Both the position numbers and the translations under genes were made by a program. A stretch of 64,000 nucleotides of DNA from Actinomucor elegans (Eukaryota > Mucoromycota > Mucoromycetes > Mucorales > Mucoraceae), in contig JAMSLZ010000016.1 of assembly GCA_026027325.1 (NCBI GenBank), positions 310,001 to 374,000 on the forward strand. Direction: 5' to 3'. Of the stretch, positions 8,940-50,530 are shown one piece after another. How positions within the stretch are numbered: position 1 is the stretch's first letter; each line of letters opens with the position of its first letter. The notes beneath the pieces were generated by a model. That model was not told the DNA's origin. It was given only the letters and a program-made list of their open reading frames with translations, and did not search any database.

Positions 8940-9012
8940 TGGAGAAGCTGGGCGTCGATCCCAGTGCCTCTCGCATGCTAAGCGAGCGCTCTACCATTTG
9001 AGCTACATCCCC
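8940..9012 (-). tRNA. tRNA-Ala, anticodon AGC
   Basis: A 73-nt minus-strand cloverleaf starting GGGGATGTAGCTCA and ending CTTCTCCA. The acceptor stem contains the G3:U70 pair that is the alanine identity element; there is one weak T-T pair in the stem. The anticodon loop reads CTTAGCATG, giving AGC. The T arm contains GGGATCGACGCCC. There is no intron. The gene looks intact, with internal promoter boxes and a T7 terminator. A LINE array starts at the base before its 5' end, and fragments of its first 14 nt recur after every LINE unit. Confidence 0.95.
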
Positions 9013-9491
9013 ACTCTTCTTCCGCTAACCAAATTTTTCTACACTTGTTGTAGTGAAAAAAATTTTTAAGCAGTTTAAACACGACTAACCTCAGCAAAAC
9101 TAATAACCAATCTATCAAAACAGTACTGGCCAACATTTCTGTGTCTTCATCTCCTTCATCTGACAAAATCTCGTCAAATTCTGAACACATTTGTCCGATT
9201 TCGCCATCTCTCCATTGTGAAAACATTACGAAGCAAGATCGCAACATCATCTCTTCCGATCAAGTTCAAACTTTGTCAGAACCTTCCTCTCCGCCCCAAA
9301 AGCACGCTGAATTTTTTTCATTGGGTGTTAAAAGGCAGTTTTCATCGCTTTCACCACCTCTTTTTCAAGCCGATTTATTTTCACTTAAAAAAACGTCGAC
9401 CAGCTACTCACACCTCAAGCCAACCAAACTACAGACACCACCAGCCTTCAGTTTGGATTTTTCACCAGCTACTGCTCCCACTACCACCAAA

Positions 9492-10912
9492 ATGACCGGT
9501 ATTGTTGATCAATCAGCATTACAACCATTCATGCAAGAGGTCAATCAGCGTTTGAGTCGACTTGAAGACGCTTATAGCGAAATCTTTCGACTGCAAAAGG
9601 CTCTTGCAGAATCTGAATCTGCTCGCCGAGCTCTCGAAGCTCAAGTTGCCTCTCTTTTGGCCCCTAAAAAGGCTAAAATCACCGCCAAGGCTGTTACTCT
9701 TCCTCTTCCTTCTTCTGGTGCTGCTGTTGTTGGTAAGTCAACAGCTAGCTATGCTTCTGTTGCTGCCACCAATGTGTGCAGCAAGAAACCAAAAAAGAAG
9801 ACTTTGCTTCCACCACCTCGCCGTGCTGCCGCCACAATTGCTCGCCTCTTTGGCCCTAACACTGAGCAACGTTAAAAATAAAAAAAATAAAAATTAGTTT
9901 TTAAATTAAATAGTGTTTTTTGTAATTATATTTTTTTTTGTTTAACACTTTTTTATTGTAATTTTTGAAAGTTTGGTAATTAACGTAAAAATAAGAAATT
10001 GCAATAATTATGCAAAACTTATAAAGATTAAACTTTTATATTACTTTTCAATACAATTAAACTTTTTTTTTTCATAATATTTCACACCAGATCGAAACCC
10101 TGTTGTGCGACAATTTTTTTCTTTTAAAATTGATTAAAAAGCACGCCGTAAGTTTTTTAGCAACTTACAACTTGATAAATAAAGAAAGCTATATAATTTT
10201 AATTTAATAATATGAAAATAATTATAATATATATATTAATTATTAATGATATGTAATGTAGCTCACTGGTATCCCTCCAGGATATCAGTTTGTGTACTAC
10301 TCTACCTCTGTTCGCCGCCCGTTGAAAGAACTGCGTCAGTCCCTTCAGGCCATTGGCTTGAACAACTCTCGCATTCTGGATATACAATATCCTACAAGTC
10401 GTGTTGTTTCGTTCCTGTTGCATAACGACTATACACTAGAATTTACTACAGCTATGCATGCCAATGGCCGTGGTGGTTCCCCTTGCCTGGATTTTGATCC
10501 TTACGACCCTGCCAACCTCAAGGATCCCAAGTTTGCTTCTCTTTCTGGTGACTTGCGAGTCCAAAAGGCTCGCGAGGTTGAAAACCTTCGTTGTCTCCGT
10601 GCTGTCTCGTTTGTCCGTCGTCCTCTTCGTGTCTCTGTTGCTCGTTCGTTTCTTGAAAAAGAGCGAATAAACCAAAAGCAATTCGATTCCATTTTGGCTG
10701 AAGAACTCGCTGCCCGCTCTGCTTCTTCTCCTCCTGGTCCCACCAGCTCCTCCTCAAGTCCACCCTCTGATGAAAAGAGGTTAGCAAGGAAACAGCGCTT
10801 GTGCTATCTAAGCTATCTCCTTCATCATGACAAGGAAACTGCGTCTCTGTTGTCTCGCGTCCCCTCTCCGACTGTCTCTCAAGTGGAAGAAGCGGAGATG
10901 ATGACCGAGTAA
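9492..10912 (+). pseudogene. ORF1-A protein gene interrupted by a MITE
   Basis: ATG at 9492 starts a frame that runs to 9863, is split by the MITE at 9864-10264, and resumes at 10268 to the TAA at 10912. Joined without the insert and the duplicated ACT, this is 339 codons in frame, the same as the intact A2 and A4 genes. The MITE itself creates an early stop at 9873-9875. Protein features are described under A2. Confidence 0.85.
9864..10264 (+). mobile_element. MITE, complete 401-bp copy (TSD ACT)
   Basis: Starts GAGCAACGTTA and ends TGTAATGTAGCTC, giving imperfect ~11-bp terminal inverted repeats. ACT is duplicated at 9861-9863 and 10265-10267. It is non-coding and AT-rich. The copy at 55301-55701 has exactly the same length. 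The 3-bp TSD would fit a Harbinger-like or CACTA-like mobiliser, but no autonomous parent is visible. Confidence 0.88.
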
Positions 10913-11579
10913 TTCCCCCGTTTTTTCTCTTGCTTGCCGCTTTAGTCGTTTTCCTTTTTCTCTCTTCCTCTCTCTCTTGATCTTTCTTTTCTTCTGGTCC
11001 TAGTACCCTTTCCAACGCTGTTTGCTTTTGCTTCTTGTTCTCTCCTTTTTTTCTTGCTTTTTTTGTGGATTCCCGGATGTTGGTGTATGTCTTTTAGTTT
11101 GGCTGCGGTGTGTCTGTCGAGGTGTTCCCCATGTGAACAGTTCCCACCCCCAATCTTCTGCTGCTTCTCATCTTTCATCTTTTTTATGTTCTTCTTTTCT
11201 TTCCCGTAGTTTTTTGTTGTCTTTTTATAGTTTGGTCTAAACCTCCATTAGGAGCTTAGGATTTATTGTACAACCTATAATATAGACTTTTTGCTGCTTT
11301 GCTCCTGGTATTGCAACTAAATGCTCCATAGAGCGAATGCATATAGAATACTATCAATAAACAAAATCTTTAAACTGAGCTACATCCCCACTCTCTTCTT
11401 TCGCTTTTGAAAACTTTTTTCAAAAATCCACTTTTTCAAAGCCGAATATCTCAACAACTACTATACATCCATCTATAAAAATTGCACATCCATCTTCGCC
11501 TCGCCGAGTACTATCTGCAGTTTTTTTTTCAGAACATTTCATCAAGTTTTCGACATCTTGAATTTTTCTCCATTTCGAA

Positions 11580-12524
11580 ATGTCCAATGTTCAACATGCC
11601 TCTGAGCCATCTGGCCTAATTGACCAAATGCAATTACAGCAAATGGTCTTTTCTGTCGTTCAACAAGTGCAACAACACCAAACTGTTTTCCAAGAGCTTC
11701 AAGCTTTGAAAGACACGATTCAAACCTTACAGTCAGAAAAACAAGCCCTTGCTGATGAAAACCAGCAATTACGTACCGAGATCTCAAAGCTAATGTCCAA
11801 AATCTCAAATCCCATTGCCAATGTTGATCAGCCATTGGTTAATTCTCAAGTCTCCCCTGAAGTGAAAGTGACTAAACCCACATTTGCTTCTGTTGCTGCT
11901 GCTCCTACTCGCCAAAAGAGTAAGAATTCTGGTTCTGTTTCGCTGAAGAAACGCATTGCTGCAGCCCGTGTGTTCAAGACCGCAGAAGCCCAGGGCCCAC
12001 AAGGTTTTACCTACGTGTATCTTGGTCGCTCTCGCAAGTTTGACCGTTTGGAAGTCCGGTCCCGTCTCCGTCGTGCTGGTGTTGACACTGGCCGTGTGAT
12101 TGATGTCTGTTTCCCTGCCTCTGGTGTCATTGGTATCTTGTTACATACTCAGTATGTAGACAGGTTCACTGAGCTTATGACTATTGCCGAAGCCGAATTT
12201 ATCAAGGATTTTGATCCATTGGACCCTGCCCATTTAGCTGATCCACGCTATGACTCTCTTTCACTGGATGCTAGGGCTAATGAAATGGCCAAAATCGTTC
12301 ACTCTCGATGCATCAATACATTGTCCTTTGTACGTCCCTTGCTCGTCTCCTCTGTTGGCCGCTCGTTTGTTGAGAAAGGATGGATGGATGATGAAACTCT
12401 TGACCATGTCATGGTGGATGCTCGTCGCCGGCTTGCTGAACAAGATCCCAAGAAGGCTGCTTTTGCTTTCCGTCGCTCTGGTAAAGACATCTCTGGTGAT
12501 AGCGATACTGAAATGTCACAATAA
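11580..12524 (+). CDS. LINE ORF1-B protein, 314 aa
   Basis: The ATG is the first one in the element, after a ~190-nt leader. The N-terminal ~90 residues are glutamine-rich and heptad-like, predicting a coiled coil. From about residue 115, SLKKRIAAARVFK leads into FTYVYLGRSRK, an arginine-rich helix (EVRSRLRRAG) and RVIDVCFPASGV, a beta-alpha-beta pattern that could be an RRM-like RNA-binding fold. This layout (coiled coil plus RNA-binding domain) is typical of L1-type ORF1 proteins, which coat the element RNA. No CCHC knuckle was seen. The stop codon shares its last base with the ORF2 start (TAATG). B6 carries the same 314-aa form; B2 and B4 carry a 319-aa form. Confidence 0.85.
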   Translation: MSNVQHASEPSGLIDQMQLQQMVFSVVQQVQQHQTVFQELQALKDTIQTLQSEKQALADENQQLRTEISKLMSKISNPIANVDQPLVNSQVSPEVKVTKPTFASVAAAPTRQKSKNSGSVSLKKRIAAARVFKTAEAQGPQGFTYVYLGRSRKFDRLEVRSRLRRAGVDTGRVIDVCFPASGVIGILLHTQYVDRFTELMTIAEAEFIKDFDPLDPAHLADPRYDSLSLDARANEMAKIVHSRCINTLSFVRPLLVSSVGRSFVEKGWMDDETLDHVMVDARRRLAEQDPKKAAFAFRRSGKDISGDSDTEMSQ

Positions 12525-15502
12525 TGACATCTTCAGTCCCTCCTTTCATTTCTGCTACTCCTGTCACTCCTTTGAACAATCCTGTCCGCTCCTTCTCTCT
12601 TGCATTGTGGAATGCCAATGGTCTTCGGGTCACTACCATCCACGATGTACTCTCTCATGCTCTCTCTTGTGATATCCTCTTGATTACTGAAACTTGGCTT
12701 ACCTCTGGGTTGATCCCTACCGATTGGTCTCAATATCATCTGTACGGTCAAACTGTCACTAATGCCAATGGACGTGGCTCAGGTGGTGTCACTGCTCTTA
12801 TTTCTCCTCACTGTCCTTTTACTGTCTCTCAACTTCCGTCTTACAATGCATATACTCTGTCGATCAAGGTTGACAAAGTCAATGTACATTGTGTCTACTT
12901 TCCACCCAGTCTCTCTCGTGATCTGGTGCTCTCTTCTCTCAACTCACTGCCTCTTCACACTGATACTATTATCTGCGGTGACTTCAATGCACGCCTTGGT
13001 GATCTTACTGGTGATTCTGCAACAAATCCTCGTGGTCTAGCTCTGCTTCCTTGGATTGAAGAACGCAATCTGTCAGTGTTGAATGCTTCCTTGGCGTATG
13101 GTATTGATACATACTGTACCTTCAGAAATGGTGCTGTGGCGAGCAGTATCATTGACTTGTTCTTGACCAACATTGGTGGTTCTGGTATGGTGTCTCCTTC
13201 TCTTTCTGTGGCATCCGATCTGTCTTTGGGCTCTGATCATCGGCTGCTTCAGTTGGGGTTCAAGTACATTGCTGTTTCTGGTGGCTCTTCTGGTGTAGGT
13301 GACTCTTCGGTGCTGGCTCCTCGTAGGACATGGAACCTCAGTCGGCTGGCTGAGTCTGAGCCTCTGGCTCTGTTCCATACTCGGTTTCGGTGTCTGGTTG
13401 CTCCTTTGAAGGATACTCTTGCTGGTCTGGTTGGTTCTCCTCCGGATAGTCGTCCACCTATAGATTCACTCAATACATCTCTGAATGAGTGTCTCTATCA
13501 GGCGATGGATGAATCCATTGGGTCTAAGGCTCCCCGTCCTGGTCATTGGAAGAAGTACTGGACAGCTGATCTGGAAGCTGCTGCTCGAGAACGTGATCGC
13601 CTCTATTGCCGTTGGCGTCATTCATTTGGTGTTGACAAGGCTTATTACTGGCATCTCCATCTGCAAGCTCACAAGTCGTTTCGTCGTGCTGTTGCTGCTG
13701 CCAAAAGGTTATCCTGGAAAAACTTTTGTGCTTCTCTGGAAAAGGATTTCGCCAAAGCTACTGCAACTATGGCTCGTCTCAAGCGTCGCAAAGAATCTAC
13801 TGCTACCTATAGCCACCCAGATGGTCCCCAAGCCTCTGTGGATACAATGGCTAGTCACTTGGCTTCCGTATATGATGGTTCTCTGTTGGCTGCTGCTTCT
13901 CGACCTTCTTTTGATTCTGACTTTGCTCTTGAAACACCATATATGGTTGATGATGAGGTTGCTGATAGCTTGTTCTCCGTGGAGGAATTGGTCTTCTATA
14001 TCAAGAACCTTCCAAATCGCAAAGCTCCTGGTCCAGACCATCTCAAGGCTGAAATGCTCAAAGCTGTTGCTGAACTTCTGGCTCCTGTACTCTCTCTGCT
14101 GTTTCTGGTATGCTTCCAATGGAGTTATACACCGTTGATCTGGCGTCAGGCTCAAGTATTTCCGATCTTCAAGAAAGGTGATGCAGATGATCCAGCCAAC
14201 TATAGACCCATCTCCTTGACCTCTGTTATGCGAAAACTCTTTGAGATATCGTTATCTTCATGTCTGTATGAGCACTCTCCGGCTTTGGATCTTGCACAAG
14301 GTGGTTTCCGTCCTCAGCGTAGTCCTCTGGATCAAGCCCTCTGCTTGCATGACTTGATGCATGATTACTTCTTGGCTCACCATCACTATCCTGTGGTGGC
14401 TTTCTTGGATATCAAAGCTGCATATGATACTGTGGATCGACGCGTTATTTGGGATGCTCTTGCCAACTCTTCTCTGCCTCGTGCTGTTCTTGGTTTGCTA
14501 GTCAACTTGTTTGACGATGTTTCTATCTCAGTATTGATCAACAACCATTCTTCGGCTGCATTTGCGCCTGCTACTGGGGTTCTCCAAGGCTCGGTGTTAA
14601 GTCCACACCTGTACTCCTTGTACATTAACTCTCTGCCTGGTTTACTGCGCTCAACTGCCTCTGCTACTGCAAGTAAAGTGTCTCCACCTGGTACCATGAG
14701 CTCTGTTCCTGTCAACTGTCTCTTGTTTGCTGATGATGTGGCAATCTTTGGCTCGAAATATGAGGTGCAAGAAATGCTTGATTTGGCTGCTGACCATTCA
14801 AAATCTCTCGGTTACCGCTGGAATCCTACCAAGTGTGCTGTTCTGAACGCTCCTTCCGTGACATCTTCCACTTCAACAAATTTTAGATTGACTCTTTACG
14901 GGGTTGCTCTACCATCTGTTGATGAGTTCACTTATCTTGGCATGCCCTTCAACAAGAAAGGCCTCTTTGGTCCCGGTATTCTGGCAAAACGATCTGGTGG
15001 TGCTATCAAGACTATGGCTCTCTTGAACTCTGTCGGTGTAAACCGGAATGGCTTTTCTCTGTTACTCTGTGCTCGGTTGTATACAGCCTTTATTCGACCC
15101 AAGTTCGAATATGGACTTGCCATCTCTCGACTGTCCGCTGCTGACTTTACTGCCCTGGATCAGCTCCAGAATCGTCTTGTTGGTATGTTCGTTGGCTCTC
15201 GCTGGTTCAATGTTGCAAAGCATCTGACTTGTATCCCTTCGATGAAGCACCGCTACAATGTTCTTGTGACCAAGTATGCTTTGCGTTCTCAGTGGCTCCC
15301 TGATGACTGCCTGGTGTCCATGCTGAATTCAGGTGATTCTGGTATCCCGTATACTCGGCTGGAAAAGCTTTTAAGGATGTATCCCAAAAGAACTCTCAGG
15401 TTTATTATTAAAACTCCGAAATCATTTTAATTTTTGTTTTATACAAAATTGAATTTTGTTTTATATTTAAAATATAACTTAAAAAGGTTTTTATAGAACT
15501 AT

Positions 15503-16384
15503 ATGTTTATAGAACCATACAAATCTTTGAAAAAAATATTTGATGATGAGAAGGAAGCACTATTGTATTTAATTGAAAACAACTATGTTAACCATTATGA
15601 AAAGTGTTTAAAATGTAACCATGATATTAAATTAAATATAAATAAAAAATTATATGTTTGCAGATTTTATAAATGTAGAAAAGCTATATCACCTTTAAAA
15701 GGTACAATATTTAATAAATTAACATTATCATTAAATATACAATTACATATACTATATTATTTTCTTGGAAAAGTGCCATGTTCATTTACTGCATCAACAT
15801 TAGGAATATCAAAGAATACTGTGTCATCTTATAATAAATTATTTAGAAAACATTTAAAAAATAAGCAATTATTAAGTAATAGAAATATTAAAATTGGGGG
15901 TAGAAATAAAATTGTAGAAGTAGATGAAAGTAAAATAGCTAAAAGAAAATATAATAGAGGTCATAGAGTAGAAGGTGCATGGATTATTGGAGGTGTAGAA
16001 AGAAGTATGTTAAAAAATAAAATAAAAAACGAAAATAAAAAAACTTTTTTTGTCCCTATTAAAGAAAGAAATATTGATAATATAGATTTAATTATTAAAA
16101 AATATGTAAAAAAAGGAACCACAATATATACAGATTTATGGAAAGGATACAATAATTTAAAGAATATAGGATATAAACATATGACTGTAAATCATTCCAA
16201 AAATTTTAAAGATCCAATAACAGGTGTACATACTAATACTATTGAAGGTACTTGGAATGGATTAAAACAGAGTATAATACCCAGACATAGAAACAAAAAA
16301 GATATATTATTGTTTTTAAAAGAATATCAATGGAGGAAAAAAAATAGGGAATATAATTTATGGAAAAAGTTTTTGACAGATTAA
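15503..16384 (+). CDS. Merlin (IS1595/ISXO2-like) transposase, 293 aa
   Basis: N-terminal zinc ribbon C35-x2-C38 ... C53-x4-C58, then an HTH-like stretch (LGISKNTVSSYNKLFRKH) and the catalytic core. Acidic residues fit the DDE triad: D141 in VEVDESKIAKRK, D211 in TIYTDLWKGY and E249 in HTNTIEGTWNGLK. The spacing of ~37 between the last two is as expected for Merlin/IS1595. The length matches the family and the frame is intact, so this copy could still be active. It excises and inserts the element, making 8-9-bp TSDs. Codons are very AT-rich compared with the LINE genes. Confidence 0.92.
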   Translation: MFIEPYKSLKKIFDDEKEALLYLIENNYVNHYEKCLKCNHDIKLNINKKLYVCRFYKCRKAISPLKGTIFNKLTLSLNIQLHILYYFLGKVPCSFTASTLGISKNTVSSYNKLFRKHLKNKQLLSNRNIKIGGRNKIVEVDESKIAKRKYNRGHRVEGAWIIGGVERSMLKNKIKNENKKTFFVPIKERNIDNIDLIIKKYVKKGTTIYTDLWKGYNNLKNIGYKHMTVNHSKNFKDPITGVHTNTIEGTWNGLKQSIIPRHRNKKDILLFLKEYQWRKKNREYNLWKKFLTD

Positions 16385-16924
16385 AGTTTATATATAACTT
16401 GATTAAATACAATTTGATTTTTTTATAAAAATGTAATATGACACGAAATATATTAAACTTAAAATGCATTTTGAAAGTTTATTTCAATTATTAATATGAT
16501 CTGATCATGTTATTAAACTGATTTATTAAATATTATATAGTTATTTTATTATAAACCTAAAAAATTTGTATATAAGTATATTTGAATGATTATCTTTAAT
16601 AAAATAATTCATTTCATATTGTTCTAATAATTATTCTTATATTACATACATTGATTATAAATTTAATGAATCTTACATCGTTGAATATACTTTTCAAGAA
16701 AAGATTTATTAATCAATAATATATATAACTTTTATTTTAATTATTTTCAATAATTATATTATAGATTCCTTTTTTTAATATACATATTATTATAATATAG
16801 ATTTATTTTCTAGTAAAATTAACTTTTCTAATATGTTCTCGGCGTTACTTAATAGTATGAATTGGATTAGATATAATGTCAACATAAAAAATTTAAAAAT
16901 TGAAAACAATTATATAGAAAAATA

Positions 16925-17221
16925 ATGAACATATTAGATTTAATAGCCGATGATAACTTTAAATATAATATTAAAAGAAGTATGATTGTAAAAAAAATAA
17001 AAAAATATGATTTAAGTGAATTTAAAATTAAACAAAAAGATGGGTGTTTTGAAATTTATATTAAAAAAAATGGATCAAATAAAAAAATAAAAAAAGTTTA
17101 TGAATTTAAAACATATAACAAAAGTAAAAAAAGCAAAAGAGTATATGAAAACAATGAGGAAGATATATTTAATAATGTTAATAACAATATTGTACCTGTT
17201 CTTAAAAAAATAAAATTATAA
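16925..17221 (+). CDS. Second ORF of the Merlin element, 98 aa, unknown function
   Basis: A lysine-rich small protein starting MNILDLIADDNFKYNIKRS, with a conserved centre (KYDLSEFKIKQKDGCFEIY and VYEFKTYNK). Homologues sit in the same place in Merlin-2 (24524-24820) and Merlin-3 (54828-55133). Merlin-2 differs at many nucleotides while the protein pattern is kept, which suggests selection on coding. No domain was recognised. A DNA-binding or regulatory accessory role is only a guess from its charge. Confidence 0.7.
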   Translation: MNILDLIADDNFKYNIKRSMIVKKIKKYDLSEFKIKQKDGCFEIYIKKNGSNKKIKKVYEFKTYNKSKKSKRVYENNEEDIFNNVNNNIVPVLKKIKL

Positions 17222-20152: not shown

Positions 20153-20340
20153 ACTCTTCTTTCGCTTTTGAAAACTTTTTTCAAAAATCCACTTTTTCAA
20201 AGCCGAATATCTCAACAACTACAATACATCCATCTATAAAAATTGCACATCCATCTTCGCCTCGCCAAGTACTATCTGCAGTTTTTTTTTCAGAACATTC
20301 CATCAAGTTTTCGACATCTTGAATTTTTCTCCATTTCGAA

Positions 20341-27116: not shown

Positions 27117-27123
<7 letters not shown>

Positions 27124-40815: not shown

Positions 40816-41095
40816 GAGGTCATACAGATACTCGCAATTGTTGTACAATTACTCGTACAGGTTCTGGGTTAGTGGATGACCTTAGGTATTTACTCATGGG
40901 CATATTTTTGGCTGCTGTGATGTTCTCTGGATATGTGTACCCATTTAAATGGCTATTTCCAATTTTTAAAACGGCTAGAAATATTTGGAATGCCGGAGAC
41001 ATATTGTATAACCACATTCTATTGCACCCGGTCATCCACTAACCCAGAACCTGTACGAGTAATTGTACAACAATTGCGAGTATCTGTATGACCTC
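40816..41095 (+). repeat. 280-bp foldback unit in the left TIR
   Basis: Begins GAGGTCATACAG...TGGATGACC and ends with the complement of that ~67-bp arm, so it is itself an inverted-repeat unit. Its mirror image is at 44695-44974. Confidence 0.85.
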
Positions 41096-41316
41096 CTAGT
41101 GGGATATCTCACCACACACTGGTAGACATACGTTCCATAGCAAGGTAGTAGAGAGGGGGGGGGGCAAAAGGGATGATCTTGTCCAGAGACCTGAATAGTT
41201 TCAGCCCCCCTGGGAATGGAAACTAAGGAGCCTAAGGCTACACTGTAGGACTGGGAGTGAACAACAGCATTTGGTAGCATACAACTCCTATTATACTACA
41301 GCATTCTTAAATAAAC

Positions 41317-42726
41317 ATGTTTCCGAAAGAAATAGTAGATGCGTTTACGTTGCTTATGGCGACTTACTGGCAGTTTCTTTCTAAAGATTGGCCAGTGTTG
41401 GAAAAGACTAAGTATCACCGGTCTGAGGTTAAGCCTGTAAAAGATATCCAGCATGTAAAAACTTATGTGTTGGAGCATCTTGGCTACATACCTGTTTTTT
41501 TCTTTCTCGTAGAGCTGTTTGCAAACCAAGAATATCCTGGTCCATATTCCAACGTGGACAAAGGATTGTTGATAATCTACCAGCTTCTTACCGGTTGTTC
41601 TATTGCGCATATGGCACGTTTCATCCCTTCTAGTAGCTACCATGCTATTTACAATGCCTTTTATACAAAATACGGAGAGGAGCTGAATACCTGTTTGGAC
41701 TATTGCCTACGAAAGATGTTCTCCTCAACAAAGCTGCGAATTATGTGTGCTCTTCACCGAAACCCTGAAGATTTTAAGCATGTTACCTTGATGATAGATG
41801 GACATGATTCTAGAGCAACATATATCAACGCTGCAGATCATGCCATGTTCTATTCGTATAAGCTTAAGAAGTCTGGCTTCCGAACACAAGTATGTACAGA
41901 TGTTAATGGGATGGTGTTGTTTGTCTCCGATGCGGCACCATGTTCAGATAACAACGATGGGTCTATGCTTGCTGATATGCGGTTGAAGAAGAAGATTAGT
42001 AAGTACGATTGTGTTGTCGTTGATGGTGGATACACTACTTTTATAGATCGTATTGTAGCAAATAATCGTCACCTGGATCGCCATAATTTTGTATTCCCTA
42101 TCCGTAAGTCTCGAGGAGTGGGTCTGAAACAAGAAGAAGTTAATTACAACTCCATTCTTGGAAGCTTTCGTTCCTCGATAGAAGCAACGTTTGGAGAGAT
42201 TGGAACCTTATTTCAACGATTCAACGGTAAAGGCGTTATTCGAGTTACCGAGATGGAGACATTCACGGTACAGTTCAAGCTTGCATGTCTTCTTGCAAAC
42301 ATCAAGAAGTTTGTTAACATTGGGTGTGTTTCTAGCTCTGAACAACATACTTTTTGGATGCAGCCTAACTTCGACTTTCCAAATGGCAGCAGTAAGAATG
42401 TCTATGACGTAGTAAGTACCCTTACAATTGCAGAAAAGTCCCAAGATGCTGAGATGGTAAAAGAAATACAGCAGCAGTTTCTCTCTTTGGGGGTGAACGA
42501 AGATAATGGCTCTGATGACGAACCCATCGACGAGGACTTACCACAAGGACACTACGAGGTTGAGGCCATTGTTGGGCATCGTGGACCAAAGCATCGTAGA
42601 GAGTATTTGGTTAGGTGGGTAGGCTATGATGAGAGTAGCAATAGTTGGCTTTCTCCTAACAACTTCGACGACTCTGATATTATTATCGAGTATGAGAAAG
42701 ACGTTAGAAGAAGGCGGAAGAAGTAG
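41317..42726 (+). CDS. DDE transposase with C-terminal chromodomain, 469 aa
   Basis: Homologous along its length to the 467-aa TE2 transposase. Catalytic candidates are D161 in LMIDGHDSR, D236 in VVVDGGY and E289 in SSIEATFGEIGTLFQRF, a DDE_Tnp_4-like set. SYKLKKSGFRTQVCTDVNG is the conserved block between the first two. A chromodomain spans ~413-459 (YEVEAIVGHRG ... YLVRWVGYDESSNSW), followed by a basic tail RRRRKK. Codon use is balanced, unlike the AT-rich TE2. It is predicted to mobilise this element; the chromodomain suggests preference for modified chromatin. Confidence 0.85.
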   Translation: MFPKEIVDAFTLLMATYWQFLSKDWPVLEKTKYHRSEVKPVKDIQHVKTYVLEHLGYIPVFFFLVELFANQEYPGPYSNVDKGLLIIYQLLTGCSIAHMARFIPSSSYHAIYNAFYTKYGEELNTCLDYCLRKMFSSTKLRIMCALHRNPEDFKHVTLMIDGHDSRATYINAADHAMFYSYKLKKSGFRTQVCTDVNGMVLFVSDAAPCSDNNDGSMLADMRLKKKISKYDCVVVDGGYTTFIDRIVANNRHLDRHNFVFPIRKSRGVGLKQEEVNYNSILGSFRSSIEATFGEIGTLFQRFNGKGVIRVTEMETFTVQFKLACLLANIKKFVNIGCVSSSEQHTFWMQPNFDFPNGSSKNVYDVVSTLTIAEKSQDAEMVKEIQQQFLSLGVNEDNGSDDEPIDEDLPQGHYEVEAIVGHRGPKHRREYLVRWVGYDESSNSWLSPNNFDDSDIIIEYEKDVRRRRKK

Positions 42727-42823
42727 GTTCCACAAGGGGATGTTTTTTAAAACTTGTTAAAATATATGGAATATTTAAGCCTTTTAAAGCACATGGTAGC
42801 ATATTCTAAGCATATACTACACA

Positions 42824-44494
42824 ATGCCCCTTAGTAAAATCTTTATAGATTACAACCAATACCTTAGTAATATCTATGGTGTCGATTACACTTGTGGTAG
42901 CGCGACGAGAGAACGTGTGGGCTGGGATTATGTTAGCGCAGTATTCTGCGACAGCATTGTCTTCTGGTGTGCTGTACATTGGGAACAAGAGAAGCTAAGT
43001 TCTGCTGTAGGAATGTACATGAGCATTCTTCGGCTTCTTCTATCCCGTCACCTACAAGTGGAGCAGTTCAAGCTCTTTTACACTGGTAGGGGTAAATGGC
43101 ATGCTGGTGAAGATAAACTTGTCAACGACATCCAACAAAGGGAGGCAAAAGAATCAGGTATTAGCTGGGATAAATACCAGCCAGGCTATATATCGCTGAG
43201 AGTTTCGTTTGAGAATATCAGCTATGGGGAACTGTGGCCAAAGCTTAAGAAGATATGCTGTAAGGTTGCAAAGAATTATATCCTTTTACATGACTTGGAT
43301 ATAAGCATCGACTGCGCCTACATATCAACACGCGATATTATTAAGGAGTACATTACTTCTAATGGCGTAGAAGATAAAGATATTGTCAACGATCGTCACT
43401 CAGTCGGTGATAACTGCTTATCATGGAGGCAGCATGATAGTTCTAGTGCTAAGATACCCTTACGAATAAAGATCTATAACAAGTTTGTCCAAATGCTTGA
43501 AAGCCGTGAATTAAGGTCTTTAATCGGCTCCCAATTGCACCACTTGGTTTCTAACCCTGACAAAGATTTTCAAGAGCGCCTTAATAAGTATCGTGGTAAT
43601 GGTATGACCAGAATAGAAATTACGTTTTATAACACCCAACTCAAGAAGGAAAGCTATTATACCAAAACTATGTCTAGGGTCCTTGAGTTCCTTGATAATT
43701 GTCCAACATACAAGGTCAGCTTCGACAGACAATGGAAGCAACTAGCTAAGAACCTTACGCAAATGGCAGCTATATATGTTCCCAAAACAAAGACTTTCGC
43801 TTACTGCCATTGGTGGAACTCCCTTACCAAGCGAATGCAAGGCATAATTCATACAAAAGTACCAGAAGAGTACGTAATGCTCCATCTTGCAAACTTTAGC
43901 TTTAACGATAGGCCCATCCACTATCTGGTAGTTAAGTTTGAGAAGAATAGTCATGAATATAAGATACTCGAAGACAGCATATATCGTCGTGAAGAAGGAT
44001 GTTCTGCCATCACGTTGGTTCCAGGGATATCTAACTCCTTAACACCCTATAGAAAGGATTTAACCAACAAAGCAGCTTCTTTTGGTGATTTAGGGATTTG
44101 TTCTTTCCGCAACATCACCCTCGAATGGCCAAAAAGTAGACTGCGACCTGAAAGAGGAGATAAACTTGCGACCATCAGGTTGGCCAAGGAGACACATGAT
44201 GATAAACTATTACAGCATCTAGATCCCTTCCCAGTGTCTGGAGCTAAACCAGATTATTCTTTCATGAAAGTAGGTGTGAAGTACCAAGTAACCGGATATG
44301 GTTATGGTACATTCCGAAGTAAGAACTATCTCCACTTACGGCTGTCCAATGGTACCTCAGTCCGTTGCAGTCCAGGTTTAAAACAAGTTGTAGAGAAGCA
44401 ACTAGAGAAGCATACCTTGTTCTATGTTTGTCTAATTCGAGTAAAGAAAGTACGTGGTGTTCGTGATGTAGAATGCGAGATCACCAACGTATGA
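42824..44494 (+). CDS. Second protein of the DDE-chromodomain transposon, 556 aa, unknown
   Basis: An intact ATG-to-stop frame ~97 nt after the transposase. No family was recognised with confidence. Three blocks resemble, in order and character, those of Rep_trans-type replication initiators: HDLDISIDCAYIS (about 156-168), IPLRIKIYNKFVQ (about 211-223) and GMTRIEITFYN (about 260-270). The C-terminal third (KYQVTGYGYGTFRSKNYL, then LRLSNGTSVRCSPG) may be a small beta-rich nucleic-acid-binding domain. If the likeness is real, it could nick or bind element DNA; this is inference from short motifs only. No transmembrane segment or signal peptide was evident. Confidence 0.6.
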   Translation: MPLSKIFIDYNQYLSNIYGVDYTCGSATRERVGWDYVSAVFCDSIVFWCAVHWEQEKLSSAVGMYMSILRLLLSRHLQVEQFKLFYTGRGKWHAGEDKLVNDIQQREAKESGISWDKYQPGYISLRVSFENISYGELWPKLKKICCKVAKNYILLHDLDISIDCAYISTRDIIKEYITSNGVEDKDIVNDRHSVGDNCLSWRQHDSSSAKIPLRIKIYNKFVQMLESRELRSLIGSQLHHLVSNPDKDFQERLNKYRGNGMTRIEITFYNTQLKKESYYTKTMSRVLEFLDNCPTYKVSFDRQWKQLAKNLTQMAAIYVPKTKTFAYCHWWNSLTKRMQGIIHTKVPEEYVMLHLANFSFNDRPIHYLVVKFEKNSHEYKILEDSIYRREEGCSAITLVPGISNSLTPYRKDLTNKAASFGDLGICSFRNITLEWPKSRLRPERGDKLATIRLAKETHDDKLLQHLDPFPVSGAKPDYSFMKVGVKYQVTGYGYGTFRSKNYLHLRLSNGTSVRCSPGLKQVVEKQLEKHTLFYVCLIRVKKVRGVRDVECEITNV

Positions 44495-44694
44495 GTACTT
44501 GTTTTTTAAAAGCTTCGCCCAACTGTCAACACATGTTACTCGTACTACAACCTTAGGCTCCTTAGTTTCCATTCCCAGGGGGGCTGAAACTATTCAGGTC
44601 TCTGGACAAGATCATCCCTTTTGCCCCCCCCCCCCTCTCTACTACCTTGCTATGGAACGTATGTCTACCAGTGTGTGGTGAGATATCCCACTAG

Positions 44695-44974
44695 GAGGTC
44701 ATACAGATACTCGCAATTGTTGTACAATTACTCGTACAGGTTCTGGGTTAGTGGATGACCGGGTGCAATAGAATGTGGTTATACAATATGTCTCCGGCAT
44801 TCCAAATATTTCTAGCCGTTTTAAAAATTGGAAATAGCCATTTAAATGGGTACACATATCCAGAGAACATCACAGCAGCCAAAAATATGCCCATGAGTAA
44901 ATACCTAAGGTCATCCACTAACCCAGAACCTGTACGAGTAATTGTACAACAATTGCGAGTATCTGTATGACCTC
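44695..44974 (-). repeat. 280-bp foldback unit in the right TIR
   Basis: Reverse complement of 40816-41095, with the same internal ~67-bp arms. Each end of the transposon is therefore a palindrome within a larger palindrome. Confidence 0.85.
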
Positions 44975-45253
44975 CATTGTGAAAACATTACGAAGCAAGA
45001 TCGCAACATCATCTCTTCCGATCAAGTTCAAACTTTGTCAGAACCTTCCTCTCCGCCCCAAAAGCACGCTGAATTTTTTTCATTGGGTGTTAAAAGGCAG
45101 TTTTCATCGCTTTCACCACCTCTTTTTCAAGCCGATTTATTTTCACTTAAAAAAACGTCGACCAGCTACTCACACCTCAAGCCAACCAAACTACAGACAC
45201 CACCAGCCTTCAGTTTGGATTTTTCACCAGCTACTGCTCCCACTACCACCAAA

Positions 45254-46270
45254 ATGACCGGTATTGTTGATCAATCAGCATTACAACCATTCATGCAAGA
45301 GGTCAATCAGCGTTTGAGTCGACTTGAAGACGCTTATAGCGAAATCTTTCGACTGCAAAAGGCTCTTGCAGAATCTGAATCTGCTCGCCGAGCTCTCGAA
45401 GCTCAAGTTGCCTCTCTTTTGGCCCCTAAAAAGGCTAAAATCACCGCCAAGGCTGTTACTCTTCCTCTTCCTTCTTCTGGTGCTGCTGTTGTTGGTAAGT
45501 CAACAGCTAGCTATGCTTCTGTTGCTGCCACCAATGTGTGCAGCAAGAAACCAAAAAAGAAGACTTTGCTTCCACCACCTCGCCGTGCTGCCGCCACAAT
45601 TGCTCGCCTCTTTGGCCCTAACACTGGTATCCCTCCAGGATATCAGTTTGTGTACTACTCTACCTCTGTTCGCCGCCCGTTGAAAGAACTGCGTCAGTCC
45701 CTTCAGGCCATTGGCTTGAACAACTCTCGCATTCTGGATATACAATATCCTACAAGTCGTGTTGTTTCGTTCCTGTTGCATAACGACTATACACTTGAAT
45801 TTACTACAGCTATGCATGCCAATGGCCGTGGTGGTTCCCCTTGCCTGGATTTTGATCCTTACGACCCTGCCAACCTCAAGGATCCCAAGTTTGCTTCTCT
45901 TTCTGGTGACTTGCGAGTCCAAAAGGCTCGCGAGGTTGAAAACCTTCGTTGTCTCCGTGCTGTCTCGTTTGTCCGTCGTCCTCTTCGTGTCTCTGTTGCT
46001 CGTTCGTTTCTTGAAAAAGAGCGAATAAACCAAAAGCAATTCGATTCCATTTTGGCTGAAGAACTCGCTGCCCGCTCTGCTTCTTCTCCTCCTGGTCCCA
46101 CCAGCTCCTCCTCAAGTCCACCCTCTGATGAAAAGAGGTTAGCAAGGAAACAGCGCTTGTGCTATCTAAGCTATCTCCTTCATCATGACAAGGAAACTGC
46201 GTCTCTGTTGTCTCGCGTCCCCTCTCCGACTGTCTCTCAAGTGGAAGAAGCGGAGATGATGACCGAGTAA
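45254..46270 (+). CDS. LINE ORF1-A protein, 338 aa (copy A4)
   Basis: 339 codons including the stop, nearly identical to the A2 protein: coiled-coil start (MTGIVDQSALQPF), RRAAATIARLF linker and YQFVYYSTSVRRPLK domain. The 4.16-kb transposon lies in the leader upstream, so the coding sequence is intact but transcription from the original LINE 5' end would be disturbed. Confidence 0.85.
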   Translation: MTGIVDQSALQPFMQEVNQRLSRLEDAYSEIFRLQKALAESESARRALEAQVASLLAPKKAKITAKAVTLPLPSSGAAVVGKSTASYASVAATNVCSKKPKKKTLLPPPRRAAATIARLFGPNTGIPPGYQFVYYSTSVRRPLKELRQSLQAIGLNNSRILDIQYPTSRVVSFLLHNDYTLEFTTAMHANGRGGSPCLDFDPYDPANLKDPKFASLSGDLRVQKAREVENLRCLRAVSFVRRPLRVSVARSFLEKERINQKQFDSILAEELAARSASSPPGPTSSSSSPPSDEKRLARKQRLCYLSYLLHHDKETASLLSRVPSPTVSQVEEAEMMTE

Positions 46271-46935
46271 TTCCCCCGTTTTTTCTCTTGCTTGCCGCTT
46301 TAGTCGTTTTCCTTTTTCTCTCTCCCTCTCTCTCTTGATCTTTCTTTTCTTCTGGTCCTAGTACCCTTTCCAACGCTGTTTGCTTTTGCTTCTTGTTCTC
46401 TCCTTTTTTTCTTGCTTTTTTTGTGGATTCCCGGATGTTGGTGTATGTCTTTTGGTTTGGCTGCGGTGTGTCTGTCGAGGTGTTCCCCATGTGAACAGTT
46501 CCCACCCCCAATCTTCTGCTGCTTCTCATCTTTCATCTTTTTTATGTTCTTCTTTTCTTTCCCGTAGTTTTTTGTTGTCTTTTTATAGTTTGGTCTAAAC
46601 CTCCATTAGGAGCTTAGGATTTATTGTACAACCTATAATATAGACTTTTTGCTGCTTTGCTCCTGGTATTGCAACTAAATGCTCCATAGAGCGAATGCAT
46701 ATAGAATACTATCAATAAACAAAATCTTTAAACTGAGCTACATCCCCACTCTTCTTTCGCTTTTGAAAACTTTTTTCAAAAATCCACTTTTTCAAAGCCG
46801 AATATCTCAACAACTACTATACATCCATCTACAAAAATTGCACATCCATCTTCGCCTCGCCGAGTACTATCTGCAGTTTTTTTTTCAGAACATTTCATCA
46901 AGTTTTCGACATCTTGAATTTTTCGCCATTTCGAA

Positions 46936-47895
46936 ATGTCCAATGTTCAACATGCCTCTGAGCCATCTGGCTCAATGGACCAAATGCAACAGCCGATGCA
47001 GTTCCAGCAGCTACAGCAAATGGTGTTTTCACTTGTTCAGCAAGTGCAACAACATCAAACATTATTTGAAGAGCTCCAGACCTTGAAAAATGAGATTCTT
47101 GGACTCAAAACCGAAAACCAGGCTCTGGTTAATGAAAATAACCAACTTCGAGCACAACTCTCTGCTGCCACCGCTCGTAGTCCACCGAAGGATGTCGCTT
47201 CTCCCGCCCAGGAAAAAAATGGTGCCCGGTCTTTCGCTGCCATTGCTGCAGCCGCTGTAAAAAAGGACAGCCGCCCCTCTCGCCCTGCTGCCGTTTCGCT
47301 AAAGAAACGTATAGCCGCTGCTCGCGCCTTCAAAACCCTTGAGGCCCAGGGTCCTCAGGGTTTTACCTATGTTTATCTTGGTCGATCCCGCAAACTTGAT
47401 CGTACTGAAGTCCGCTCTCGGTTACGTCGCGCTGGTGTTGACACTGGTCGTGTGTTAGATGTCTGTTTCCCTGCCACTGGTGTCCTTGGTGTCCTGATAC
47501 ATACGCAGTATGTTGAAAAGTTTACCGAGCTTATGACTACGGCTGAAGCTGAGTTCATTAAGGATTTTGATCCTTTAAACCCAGCCCATCTTGCTGACCC
47601 CAAGTATGCTTCTCTCTCAGCCAATGCTCGTGAAAACGAGATGGCTAACCTCGTTCACTCTCGCTGTATCAGCACTCTGGCGTTCATTCGACCAGTGATG
47701 GTCCCTTCTGTTGGTCGCTCCTTTGTGGAACTTGGATGGATTGATGATGGTGATCTTGATCAAGCCATTAAGGAAGCTCGCTCTCGTCTTGCCGAAAAGG
47801 ATCCCAAGAAGGCTGCTTTTGCTTTCCGTAGTTCTGGTGCTTTGCCATCTGGTGAAGACGTTACAGGTGATAGCGATACTGAAATGTCACAATAA
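46936..47895 (+). CDS. LINE ORF1-B protein, 319 aa (copy B4)
   Basis: Almost identical to the B2 protein, with Q-to-K and R-to-P type substitutions. First ATG of the unit; TAATG overlap with ORF2 at 47895. Coiled coil plus putative RNA-binding domain as described for B1 and B2. Confidence 0.85.
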   Translation: MSNVQHASEPSGSMDQMQQPMQFQQLQQMVFSLVQQVQQHQTLFEELQTLKNEILGLKTENQALVNENNQLRAQLSAATARSPPKDVASPAQEKNGARSFAAIAAAAVKKDSRPSRPAAVSLKKRIAAARAFKTLEAQGPQGFTYVYLGRSRKLDRTEVRSRLRRAGVDTGRVLDVCFPATGVLGVLIHTQYVEKFTELMTTAEAEFIKDFDPLNPAHLADPKYASLSANARENEMANLVHSRCISTLAFIRPVMVPSVGRSFVELGWIDDGDLDQAIKEARSRLAEKDPKKAAFAFRSSGALPSGEDVTGDSDTEMSQ

Positions 47896-50530
47896 TGACA
47901 TCTTCAGTCCCTCCTTTCACTCCTTCTGATACCCCCGTCCGCTCCTTTTCTCTTGCATTGTGGAATGCCAATGGCCTTCGGGTCACTACCATCCATGATG
48001 TACTTTCTCATGCTCTCTCTTGTGATATCCTCTTGATTACTGAAACTTGGCTTACCTCTGGGTTGATCCCTACCGATTGGTCTCAATATCATCTGTACGG
48101 TCAAATTGTCACTAATGCCAATGGACGTGGCTCAGGTGGTGTCACTGCTCTCATTTCTCCTCACTGTCCTTTTACTGTCTCTCAACTTCCGTCTTACAAT
48201 GCATATACTCTGTCGATCAAGGTTGACAAAGTCAATGTGCATTGTGTCTACTTTCCACCCAGTCTCTCTCGTGATCTGGTGCTCTCTTCTCTCAACTCAC
48301 TGCCTCTGCACTCTGATAGTATTATCTGCGGTGATTTCAATGCACGCCTTGGTGATGTTACTGGTGATTCTGCAACAAATCCTCGTGGTCAAGCTCTACT
48401 TCCTTGGATTGAAGAACGCAATCTGTCAGTGTTGAATGCTTCCTTGGCGTATGGTATTGATACATACTGTACCTTTAGAAATGGTGCTGTGGCGAGCAGT
48501 ATCATTGATTTGTTCTTGACCAACATTGGTGGTTCTGGTATGGTATCTGCTTCTCTTTCTGTGGCTTCTGATCTATCTCTGGGCTCGGATCATCGTCTGC
48601 TGCAATTGAGATTCAGGTACATTGCTGTTTCTGGTGGCTCTTCTGGGGTAGGTGACTCTTCGGTGCTGGCTCCTCGTAGGACATGGAACCTCAGTCGGCT
48701 GGCTGAGTCTGAGCCTTTGGCTCTGTTCCATACTCGGTTTCGGTGTCTGGTTGCTCCCTTGAAGGATACTCTGGCTGGTCTGGTTGGTTCTCCTCCGGAT
48801 AGTCGTCCACCTATAGATTCACTCAATGCATCTCTGAATGAGTGTCTCTATCAGGCTATGGATGCATCCATTGGGTCTAAGGCTCCTCGTCCTGGTCATT
48901 GGAAGAAGTACTGGACTGCTGATCTGGAAGCTGCTGCTCGAGAACGTGATCGCCTCTATTGCCGTTGGCGTCATTCATTTGGTGTTGACAAGGCTTATTA
49001 CTGGCATCTTCATCTGCAAGCTCACAAGTCGTTTCGTCGTGCTGTTGCTGCTGCAAAAAGACTCTCCTGGAAGAACTTTTGCATGTCACTCCAAAAGGAC
49101 TTTGCCAAGGCCACTGCGACCATGTCTAGGCTGAAACGCCGGAAAGAAACCTCTGCTACGTATGCTCATCCTGATGGCCCTCAAGCATCAGTCGATTCTA
49201 TGGCTACACACCTGGCTACAGTGTATGATGGTTCTCTTTTATCAACTGCTTCTCGTCCCCTGGCTGCTCCTGACTTTGGTTTAGAAGTGCCTTTCCTGGT
49301 GTCTGATGAAGAAGTGTCTTGGATTTTCTCGGTGGAAACCTTGGTTGAGCATATCAAACAGTTGCCGAATCGCAAAGCTCCTGGTCCTGATCATCTAAAA
49401 GCTGAAATGCTCAAGGCTGTTGCTGATTTACTTGCTCCTGTCCTCTCTTTGCTATTCCAGGTTTGTTACCAATGGTGCTATACACCGGTTCTATGGCGTC
49501 AAGCCCAGGTCTTTCCTATCTTCAAGAAAGGTGATGCTTCTGATCCTGCCAACTACAGGCCAATTTCTTTGACTTCGGTGATGCGTAAGTTGTTTGAGAT
49601 TACCATTGCACAAAGCGTCTATGACCATTCGCCTCCTCTAGATCTCGCACAAGGTGGCTTCCGTCCCATGCGTAGTCCTCTGGATCAAGCCCTCTGTCTG
49701 CACGACCTGATGCACAACTACTTCTTGGTTCATCACCACTATCCTGTTGTTGCTTTTCTGGATATTAAGGCTGCCTATGACACTGTTGATCGACGTGTGA
49801 TCTGGAATGCTCTTGAGAACTCATCTCTGCCTCGTCCTCTCCTTGGTCTGCTGGTCAATCTATTTGATGATGTATCCATCTCCGTGTTGATTGCCAACCA
49901 CATCTCTTCCTCTTTCTCTCCTGCCACTGGTGTACTCCAAGGTTCGGTGTTGAGTCCTCACTTGTATTCTTTATACATCAACTCCTTGCCTGAGCTCCTT
50001 CGGTCTGAAGCTTCGGATACTACTGCTGTGGTGTCTCCTCCTGGATCTACTGAGGCTGTGGTCATTAACTGTCTTCTGTTTGCCGACGATGTGGCGATCT
50101 TTGGCTCCAAACATGAGGTGCAAAATATGTTGAACCTAGCTGCTGACCATTCAAGAGTACTGGGCTATCGTTGGAATCCAACCAAGTGTGCTGTCCTGAA
50201 CGCTCCTTCTGTGACCTCCTCTACGTCTACCAACTTTAGACTGAGTCTCTATGATGTTCCTCTGCCTGCAGTGAACGAGTTCACGTACCTTGGTATGCCA
50301 TTCAACAAAAAAGGTCTTGATGGTCCAGGTATCTTGGCTAAACGGTCTGGTGGTGCTGTCAAAACCATGGCTCTACTGAATTCGGTTGGTGTCAACCGCA
50401 ATGGCTTCTCTCTCTTGCTCTGTTCTCGGTTATATACTACCTTCATTCGGCCCAAGTTTGAGTACGTTCTTGCTATATCTAGGCTCTCTGCTGCTGACTT
50501 TACTGCTTTGGATAACCTTCAGAACCGGTT
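47895..50530 (+). pseudogene. LINE ORF2, C-terminally truncated by a CACTA-type sequence
   Basis: Endonuclease and RT are complete, with TETW, GDFNARLGD, SDHR, KAPGPDHLKAEML, NYRPISL and FADDVAIF. Homology stops at NLQNR(F) at 50530. The frame continues by chance for 67 codons into the inserted terminus and stops at 50732. The ~250-aa C-terminal region with the CPCF cluster is missing. Confidence 0.9.

What the first reader, a model, noticed from the sequence alone, without database searches (positions are those of the whole stretch)
8940..50530. LINE array anchored at the exact 5' end of a tRNA-Ala gene
The first unit starts at the base adjacent to tRNA-Ala(AGC) position 1. Each unit whose 3' end is present then ends with TGAGCTACATCCCC, the reverse complement of tRNA nucleotides 1-14. 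This is seen directly at 11389, 18180, 20152, 27109, 30629, 40611 and 46747, and in the opposite array at 55239 and 62626. The simplest reading is a site-specific LINE that inserts at the 5' edge of tRNA-Ala, duplicates 14 bp, leaves the internal promoter and terminator intact, and reuses the duplicated site for the next insertion. tRNA-associated LINEs are known in Dictyostelium (TRE family), but there they sit at offsets from the gene rather than within a duplicated tRNA 5' end.
Basis: partly seen in the sequence, partly recalled or inferred. Interest (0 to 1): 0.88.

Follow-up and report, generated by a model that had tools for sequence, protein, structure and literature searches.

The report
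LINEs that insert inside tRNA genes
In this mould-like fungus, LINE retrotransposons insert at one exact base inside tRNA-Ala genes, copying the first 14 letters of the tRNA each time so that the tRNA gene stays whole and long LINE arrays build up beside it, and a related LINE does the same thing at a tRNA-Pro gene.

Summary
TGAGCTACATCCCC occurs 84 times in the 36.5-Mb genome: 11 times as the 5' end of tRNA-Ala(AGC) genes, 72 times right after a LINE 3' end and once in a short junction filler. All 53 ORF2 matches lie in these clusters (48 of 295 candidates were scored). Eight of the 11 tRNA-Ala genes found are occupied at the base next to nucleotide 1; three are empty. At one array's far end, the last 14-mer is followed by sequence that aligns with the upstream flank of an empty tRNA-Ala gene.

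Two families share the target: an autonomous LINE (A: ORF1, and ORF2 with APE endonuclease and RT) and a 2-kb element with only ORF1 (B).

A prediction came true. A related LINE abuts nucleotide 1 of a tRNA-Pro(AGG) gene; tRNA-Pro nucleotides 1-14 recur 14 kb behind it, followed by a second copy. Both inferred nicks lie after A14, inside box A.

Most likely mechanism: target-primed reverse transcription from a nick in the tRNA sense strand with a 14-bp stagger. New variant of a known kind; related LINEs are probably already known in Mucorales.

The parts
8940..9012 (-). tRNA-Ala(AGC) gene, the anchor; body intact
   Evidence: 73-nt body identical in all 11 genomic copies found
8999..9012 (+). 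target sequence in place (complement of tRNA nt 1-14)
9013..11375 (+). element B, copy 1, with a ~400-bp insertion at about 9865-10263
   Evidence: 99.5% to B reference in two pieces
11376..11389 (+). 14-bp target duplication
11390..18166 (+). element A' (83-87% to A), interrupted by other sequence between about 15.3 and 17.3 kb
   Evidence: ISXO2-like transposase at 15503-16384
11580..12524 (+). ORF1 of A'
   Evidence: dN/dS 0.17 against A
12524..15430 (+). ORF2 of A' (APE endonuclease + RT), 3' part displaced by the insertion
   Evidence: Pfam PF00078, PF14529, PF03372; dN/dS 0.14 against A
18167..18180 (+). 14-bp target duplication
18181..20138 (+). element B, uninterrupted 1958-bp copy
   Evidence: this copy is the B reference
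18660..19676 (+). ORF1-only reading frame of B (338 aa from its ATG)
   Evidence: 34% over 143 aa to A ORF1, E 2e-25; no RT domain
20139..20152 (+). 14-bp target duplication
20153..27095 (+). element A, interrupted at 23243-25322
27096..27109 (+). 14-bp target duplication
27110..30615 (+). 5'-truncated element B (starts near B nt 1526), interrupted after 27518
30616..30629 (+). 14-bp target duplication
30630..40597 (+). 5'-truncated element A' (from A nt 2204), interrupted
40598..40611 (+). 14-bp target duplication
40612..46733 (+). element B, interrupted by about 4.2 kb of other sequence
46734..46747 (+). 14-bp target duplication
46748..50530 (+). element A, nt 1-3783; ORF1 46936-47895 and most of ORF2 from 47895; 3' end not present
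55239..55252 (-). 14-bp target duplication of the opposite array (anchor tRNA at C8:389640, outside the window)
55253..62625 (-). element A' of the opposite array, interrupted
62626..62639 (-). 14-bp target duplication of the opposite array
62640..64000 (-). element B of the opposite array, continuing beyond the window

Best explanation
These are site-specific LINEs that transpose by target-primed reverse transcription into the first 14 bp of tRNA-Ala(AGC) genes. Shown from sequence: the element lies antisense to the tRNA, with its 5' end at tRNA nucleotide 1 and its 3' end at a copy of tRNA nucleotides 1-14; in the one array whose far flank could be recognised, that flank is the tRNA's upstream type. 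Inferred: the ORF2 endonuclease nicks the tRNA sense strand after A14 inside box A; the freed end (GGGGATGTAGCTCA-OH) primes cDNA synthesis from the RNA 3' end (AAUCUUUAAAC); the other strand is cut at the nucleotide 1 boundary. The 14-bp stagger leaves the tRNA body and its T-rich 3' flank whole and provides a fresh target copy, so arrays grow. B, which encodes only ORF1, is mobilised by A's ORF2. Also inferred: RNA that reads through into the 14-mer behind its donor element is perfectly complementary to the primer strand, which could explain both the exact 3' junction and the choice of tRNA.
For: Genome-wide junction table: 84 motifs, 72 of them right after an element 3' end, 1 in a filler, 11 in tRNA-Ala. 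71 of 72 pattern-found 3' ends are followed by the exact 14-mer and the other one by a 14-mer split by another transposon. Eight of 11 tRNA-Ala loci, which have identical bodies but different 3' flanks and so are separate loci, carry an element exactly at nucleotide 1: seven with the intact 5' end and one 5'-truncated copy. After its last 14-mer the C27 array continues with a flank that aligns with the upstream flank of the empty tRNA-Ala at C27:1133232 (score 56.5 against shuffled mean 9.9, maximum 19). All 53 ORF2 match rows lie in the clusters (48 of 295 candidates scored). ORF2 has APE endonuclease and RT, nearest solved relative human L1 ORF2p. 5'-truncated copies carry the same 14-mer. 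Independent case: the predicted tRNA-Pro nt 1-14 duplication behind a related LINE was found, followed by a second copy. Purifying selection between A and A' (dN/dS 0.17 for ORF1, 0.14 for ORF2; 0.34 between two A copies).
Against: In A/B every target found has the same 14 nt, so within that family alone the duplication cannot be told from a 14-nt tail carried by the element; the separation rests on the C27 flank and on the single tRNA-Pro case. Of the 27 motif copies not followed by an intact 5' end, only one (C27) was seen to show a displaced tRNA flank. The B-A partnership rests on shared ends and target only. An AATAAA signal stands close to the element 3' end, which would suit polyadenylation at the end better than read-through. 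No biochemistry or expression data were available.
Confidence: 0.9

Rival explanations
1. The 14-mer is part of the element's own 3' end (a captured tRNA piece that guides insertion), and insertion makes no duplication: the element is simply placed at the blunt tRNA boundary.
For: All 72 standard A/B ends at a motif carry the same 14-mer, and no A/B insertion at another target was found.
Against: A related LINE next to tRNA-Pro is followed by the first 14 nt of tRNA-Pro, not of tRNA-Ala, in the same place and of the same length. APE-type LINEs normally make target duplications of such length (recalled). The rival needs two independent captures of exactly nt 1-14.
Confidence: 0.06
2. Arrays arose mainly by tandem duplication and unequal recombination of one ancestral tRNA-linked unit, with little or no continuing site-specific insertion.
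For: Four neighbouring units at C22:701-718 kb share the same unusual 5' junction, and two of the three spacings between them are 4872 bp.
Against: Eight tRNA-Ala loci with different 3' flanks carry first elements of different kinds: A or A', B, and a truncated A. Neighbouring units differ in family, subfamily, truncation point and 5' junction nucleotides.
Confidence: 0.04
3. Targeting is by Pol III factors (TFIIIB/TFIIIC) bound at tRNA genes, as reported for Dictyostelium TRE5-A, not by sequence recognition or annealing.
For: The cut positions are the same relative to tRNA numbering in two different tRNAs (after A14 and at nucleotide 1), and box A is the shared landmark (box A numbering recalled). 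TRE5-A ORF1 binds TFIIIB subunits (PMC5911963, passages). Interruption by other sequence grows with distance from the tRNA (permutation p 0.0026), as if new copies enter at the tRNA.
Against: A/B insertions are restricted to one isoacceptor and one exact base; all 72 A/B 3' ends found by pattern carry the Ala sequence, one of them split, while factor-guided elements hit many tRNA types over a window. A combination (Pol III factors for access, sequence for the exact site) is possible.
Confidence: 0.25

Closest known systems
Dictyostelid TRE5 / TRE3 non-LTR elements
   Same: APE-type LINEs with two ORFs that settle next to tRNA genes in a compact genome (PMC5006619 and PMC5911963, passages)
   Different: TRE5 sits 40-54 bp upstream and TRE3 40-150 bp downstream, next to tRNA genes as a class, with poly(A) tails; here the site is one exact base inside the tRNA sequence of one isoacceptor, the 14-bp duplication is tRNA nt 1-14, and no poly(A) stands at the junction
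Dictyostelium purpureum NLTR-A
   Same: LINE directly upstream of tRNA genes, 2-6 bp from nucleotide 1
   Different: carries an RNase H domain and inserts over a small window outside the tRNA; here the distance is 0 bp, the target lies inside the tRNA, and Pfam shows no RNase H
Grem-LINE1 of Mucor circinelloides / lusitanicus
   Same: two-ORF APE/RT LINE of Mucorales in gene-free clusters (PMC7377519, passages), arranged in pericentric regions as inverted repeats (PMC8072676, passage), as the two opposed arrays of this window are
   Different: described there by pericentric position and RNAi control; 'tRNA' does not occur in PMC7377519, PMC8072676 or PMC11943222 and in PMC7763443 only in other contexts. 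The original Curr Biol 2019 description is not held, so tRNA linkage there is unknown
Dada DNA transposons (tRNA and snRNA genes)
   Same: exact insertion inside tRNA genes, including tRNA-Ala and box A, with family-specific tRNA choice (PMC3706591, passages)
   Different: DDE DNA transposon with 6-7 bp duplications inside the gene; here a retrotransposon that leaves the tRNA whole
Dewa (zebrafish element in the spacer of tRNA-Leu) and other site-specific LINEs of multicopy RNA genes
   Same: one fixed site at multicopy RNA genes (named in PMC3706591; that Dewa is a LINE is recalled)
   Different: spacer, rRNA, 5S or U2 targets; none of those named there splits a tRNA gene from its flank at nucleotide 1
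HAL1 (ORF1-only half-LINE of mammals; recalled)
   Same: element with ORF1 and no RT, thought to be moved by a full LINE
   Different: B is a separate family only about 34% identical to A in ORF1, sharing mainly short terminal sequences and the target with A

Membership tests
APE-type (L1-like) non-LTR retrotransposon | ORF2 with APE endonuclease followed by RT | tested here: met
   PF14529/PF03372 then PF00078 in a 1130-aa ORF2; best solved relatives are human L1 ORF2p
APE-type (L1-like) non-LTR retrotransposon | upstream ORF1 with coiled coil and RRM-like domain | tested here: inconclusive
APE-type (L1-like) non-LTR retrotransposon | 5' truncation and target site duplication | tested here: met
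   truncated copies with the same 14-mer; displaced flank at C27
TRE (Dictyostelium tRNA-gene-targeted LINEs) | insertion at a distance of tens of bp from many tRNA types | tested here: not met
   0 bp from nucleotide 1; all 72 A/B 3' ends found by pattern carry the tRNA-Ala 14-mer, one of them split
TRE (Dictyostelium tRNA-gene-targeted LINEs) | RT phylogeny within the TRE clade | not tested
   no TRE sequence was fetched
NLTR-A | RNase H domain behind the RT | tested here: not met
   no RNase H family among Pfam hits at E up to 1
Grem-LINE1 | RT, AP endonuclease, zf-RVT and zinc fingers (as listed in PMC7377519) | tested here: inconclusive
   RT and APE met; zf-RVT and CCHC not hit by Pfam at E up to 1, although a Cys/His cluster is visible near the ORF2 C-terminus
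Grem-LINE1 | pericentric location | not testable with these tools
   no kinetochore or centromere data for this genome; the opposed arrays between two tRNA-Ala genes (C8:319-390 kb) resemble the inverted-repeat arrangement described for Mucor
site-specific LINE of a multicopy RNA gene | one fixed target base in an RNA gene, with empty and filled copies of the target | tested here: met
   8 filled and 3 empty of 11 tRNA-Ala loci found

The most novel reading that the evidence does not exclude
A clade of Mucorales LINEs cuts tRNA genes by a common geometry (nick after A14 in box A, second cut at nucleotide 1) while each family chooses its own isoacceptor (A/B: Ala, P: Pro), perhaps by annealing of read-through RNA to the nicked tRNA strand. 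By always duplicating the target and leaving the tRNA whole, these LINEs turn single tRNA genes into seeds of long gene-free LINE islands, and such islands, here two opposed arrays between two tRNA-Ala genes, may correspond to the pericentric inverted-repeat LINE clusters known from Mucor.
Probability: 0.3. Interest if true: 0.88.

Novelty: new variant of a known kind. Interest (0 to 1): 0.74.

Why it matters
LINEs with fixed sites are rare, and those I found described at tRNA genes sit beside the gene. Here the target is the tRNA sequence itself, yet the host keeps an intact gene, and the same cut geometry occurs at two different tRNAs. That gives a natural pair for asking how a LINE chooses and changes its target: by endonuclease, RNA-DNA annealing or Pol III factors. 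It also gives a concrete origin for LINE islands in a fungal genome: eight of them start at a tRNA-Ala gene. Whether the pericentric LINE clusters of Mucor begin the same way can be checked at once in public genomes.

Tried and rejected
Element-carried 14-mer: considered and made unlikely by the tRNA-Pro case. Off-array A copies: the 7 off-cluster 3'-end pattern hits are chance 13-mers with unrelated sequence in front. Off-array hits among the 80 hits of the 5'-end pattern CTCTYYTTYCGCT were not examined one by one; the reversed control pattern gives 16 hits.

tRNA association of all LINEs in this genome: not general. 16 of 62 endonuclease-family matches lie outside the A/B clusters; one is the tRNA-Pro LINE. 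At two loci of another LINE family (C1:2450030 and C1:2847170) the shared 5' sequence is preceded by unrelated DNA and no tRNA is found. Four further loci (C9, C11, C21:353825, C12) showed no tRNA in the 0.8-2.7 kb pieces fetched, but their 5' ends were not located. The rest were not looked at.

Arrays without a visible anchor: C1:15-67 kb, C15, C21:8-56 kb, C22:2.13 Mb and C7 have no tRNA-Ala nearby in the genome-wide searches. C1 and C15 run to contig ends; for the others the anchor may be displaced or lost.

Age order: excess unit length grows with rank from the tRNA over 50 units of 8 anchored arrays (permutation p 0.0026; Spearman 0.38, p 0.007), but rank-1 units alone are not clearly different (5 of 8 uninterrupted against 17 of 42). 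One filler motif (C14:147411) was left out of that list, and the possible tandem run on C22 was kept in.

Organism: first guessed as Mucor circinelloides from genome size; rejected because an F-box-like protein is only 42% identical to the best record named Mucor circinelloides. It is some Mucorales relative, unnamed.

ORF1 fold: only weak matches. Relatives elsewhere: viral contigs held no match, and in genome contigs 11 pattern stretches did not hold up. Relatives' insertion sites in other Mucorales could not be read, because the protein search gives no context. Literature: the listings showed no title linking Mucorales LINEs with tRNA genes; passages of eight papers were seen, none read whole. 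The key 2019 Grem-LINE1 paper is not held, so prior report cannot be excluded.
Full report
Observation. tRNA-Ala(AGC) lies at 8940-9012 on the minus strand. A BLAST map with native reference units shows, from the tRNA outward: B, A', B, A, truncated B, truncated A', B, A on the plus strand, and an opposing array on the minus strand from 55.2 kb. The opposing array runs to a tRNA-Ala at C8:389640, outside the window. Many copies are broken up by other sequence, some of it recognisable transposons.

Elements. A is 4.86 kb with ORF1 (319 aa) and ORF2 (1130 aa; APE endonuclease, RT). Its nearest solved relatives are human L1 ORF2 proteins. A' is a subfamily, roughly 83% identical (pieces range from 76 to 88%). 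Between A and A' ORF1 and ORF2 show purifying selection (dN/dS 0.17 and 0.14); between two A copies the ratio is 0.34. In 25 of 53 ORF2 match rows the frame is open over at least 1118 aa without stops, so the population looks young. B is 1958 bp; its aligned pieces in the arrays are 98-100% identical, apart from one diverged relative on C15. It has a single frame related to A's ORF1 (34% over 143 aa, E 2e-25) and no RT. The clearest DNA that A and B share is about 14 nt at the 5' end (ACTCTTCTTYCGCT), 11 nt at the 3' end (AATCTTTAAAC), a nearby small hairpin sequence (GCTCYATAGAGY) and AATAAA. The likely reading is that B is moved by A's ORF2.

Genome test. The genome (36.5 Mb, 27 contigs) has 84 exact 14-mers. 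Reading all 84 junctions and classing them: 11 are tRNA-Ala genes, 54 follow an A 3' end, 18 a B 3' end, and 1 is a filler directly behind another 14-mer. On the other side, 42 are followed by an A-type 5' end, 15 by a B 5' end, and 27 by neither: 5'-truncated or altered elements, later insertions, a B relative, the three empty tRNA flanks and one displaced tRNA flank. Of the 57 intact 5' ends, 35 begin with the same single base before CTCTTC; the rest carry 0-12 other nucleotides, and three of these begin with a partial second copy of the target. The 3' junction is invariant: 72 of the 73 non-tRNA copies are preceded by ATCTTTAAAC.

Starting instead from 3' ends: 61 hits of the A pattern contain 7 chance hits; the remaining 54, and 18 of 18 B hits, are followed by the 14-mer, one of them split by another transposon with an ATCCC duplication. 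All 53 ORF2 match rows lie inside the same clusters; only 48 of 295 first-look candidates were scored, so old fragments elsewhere are not excluded. Sixteen of 62 endonuclease-family matches lie outside the clusters; those looked at belong to other LINE families.

Filled and empty targets. Two searches find the same 11 tRNA-Ala(AGC) genes, with identical 73-nt bodies and different 3' flanks; tRNA-Ala genes of other anticodons were not listed. Eight are occupied at the base next to nucleotide 1: seven with an intact element 5' end and one with a 5'-truncated A. Three are empty. At C27 the array ends in a 14-mer followed by sequence that aligns over about 160 bp with the upstream flank of the empty gene at C27:1133232 (score 56.5; shuffled mean 9.9, maximum 19; the two other empty flanks score 16 and 10 against it). 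The simplest history is that this array was inserted between a tRNA gene and its own upstream flank.

A second target. Other LINEs of the genome were found through ORF1 and endonuclease matches. One, at C22:2.60 Mb, begins exactly at the base next to nucleotide 1 of tRNA-Pro(AGG), with a 5' end that fits the same degenerate pattern as A and B. If the rule were general, tRNA-Pro nt 1-14 should be duplicated behind it. The 14-mer TAAACCAAGAAACC has seven exact hits in the genome. Five have the tRNA-Pro body in front: the occupied one (ARAGORN), three more called by ARAGORN and one (C7) not called, probably because the fetched piece is cut at its edge, though it reads the same. One hit is a stray (C24). 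The last lies 14 kb behind the occupied gene, preceded by AATAAAATCTTTTGCA and followed by a second copy of the same element 5' end. The duplication length (14 bp) and the position (after A14) match the tRNA-Ala case. Two loci of another LINE family have no tRNA at their 5' ends, so the feature is not shared by every LINE here.

Mechanism. Shown: orientation antisense to the tRNA, exact junctions, a 14-bp repeat of tRNA nt 1-14, 5' truncation, intact tRNA, arrays. Inferred: a nick after A14 on the tRNA sense strand (its place in box A is from recalled tRNA numbering), priming by GGGGATGTAGCTCA-OH, second cut at nucleotide 1, and mobilisation of B by A. Speculative: annealing of read-through RNA to the primer strand, or help by Pol III factors. 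Interruption increases with distance from the tRNA (permutation p 0.0026 over 50 units of 8 arrays), which fits new copies entering near the tRNA, although rank-1 units alone do not differ clearly. A run of four alike junctions on C22 suggests that some growth is by tandem duplication.

Known kinds. TRE5, TRE3 and NLTR-A sit 40-54 bp upstream, 40-150 bp downstream and 2-6 bp upstream of tRNA genes (PMC5006619 and PMC5911963, passages only). Dada is a DNA transposon with targets inside tRNAs, and Dewa is named for a tRNA-Leu spacer (PMC3706591, passages). Grem-LINE1 of Mucor is a pericentric LINE (PMC7377519, passages), arranged as inverted repeats (PMC8072676, passage); a review says such elements seem present in all Mucoromycotina (PMC7763443, passages), and PMC9089191 (passages) describes transposons in the gene-free pericentric regions. 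Its original paper is not held. The opposed arrays between two outward-facing tRNA-Ala genes at C8:319-390 kb look like such an inverted repeat, which is why I keep the pericentric idea open; it was not tested. ORF2 relatives occur in Mucor velutinosus, M. saturninus, Rhizopus, Cokeromyces, Dichotomocladium and Umbelopsis. The host appears to be a Mucorales fungus but not M. circinelloides. The LINE lineage is therefore probably known; ten paper searches listed no work on exact targeting of tRNA nt 1-14 by such LINEs, but only open-licence papers were searched and few were opened.

Verdict. It is a new variant of a known kind, site-specific LINEs at tRNA genes.

Noticed in passing
29029-30432 and 41317-42726: Two DDE_Tnp_4 transposase frames carry a C-terminal chromodomain, which seems an unusual fusion for a DNA transposon; they sit inside the LINE array.
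   Followed up: no
665-3733: Gypsy-type pol frame with integrase and chromodomain just outside the array.
   Followed up: no
9865-10263: AT-rich insertion of about 400 bp in the first B copy; similar sequence also lies near the 3' end of the tRNA-Pro LINE (L100), so it is probably a small mobile repeat.
   Followed up: partly
L012:5265-5277 (C1:35265-35277): A transposon with TGTTGT/ACAACA ends is inserted inside a 14-mer with an ATCCC duplication.
   Followed up: yes
C22:701186-718308: Four consecutive A units share the same odd 5' junction (extra C's), two of their three spacings being 4872 bp, suggesting tandem duplication of one unit.
   Followed up: partly
C8:39389, C8:61858 and C22:725161: Between target duplication and element start lies a partial second copy of the target, as if RNA began inside the upstream 14-mer.
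   Followed up: no
L022 around 8500-9115 (C15:213500-214115): A diverged relative of B (76% over about 300 bp) directly behind a 14-mer, pointing to older B-like families.
   Followed up: no
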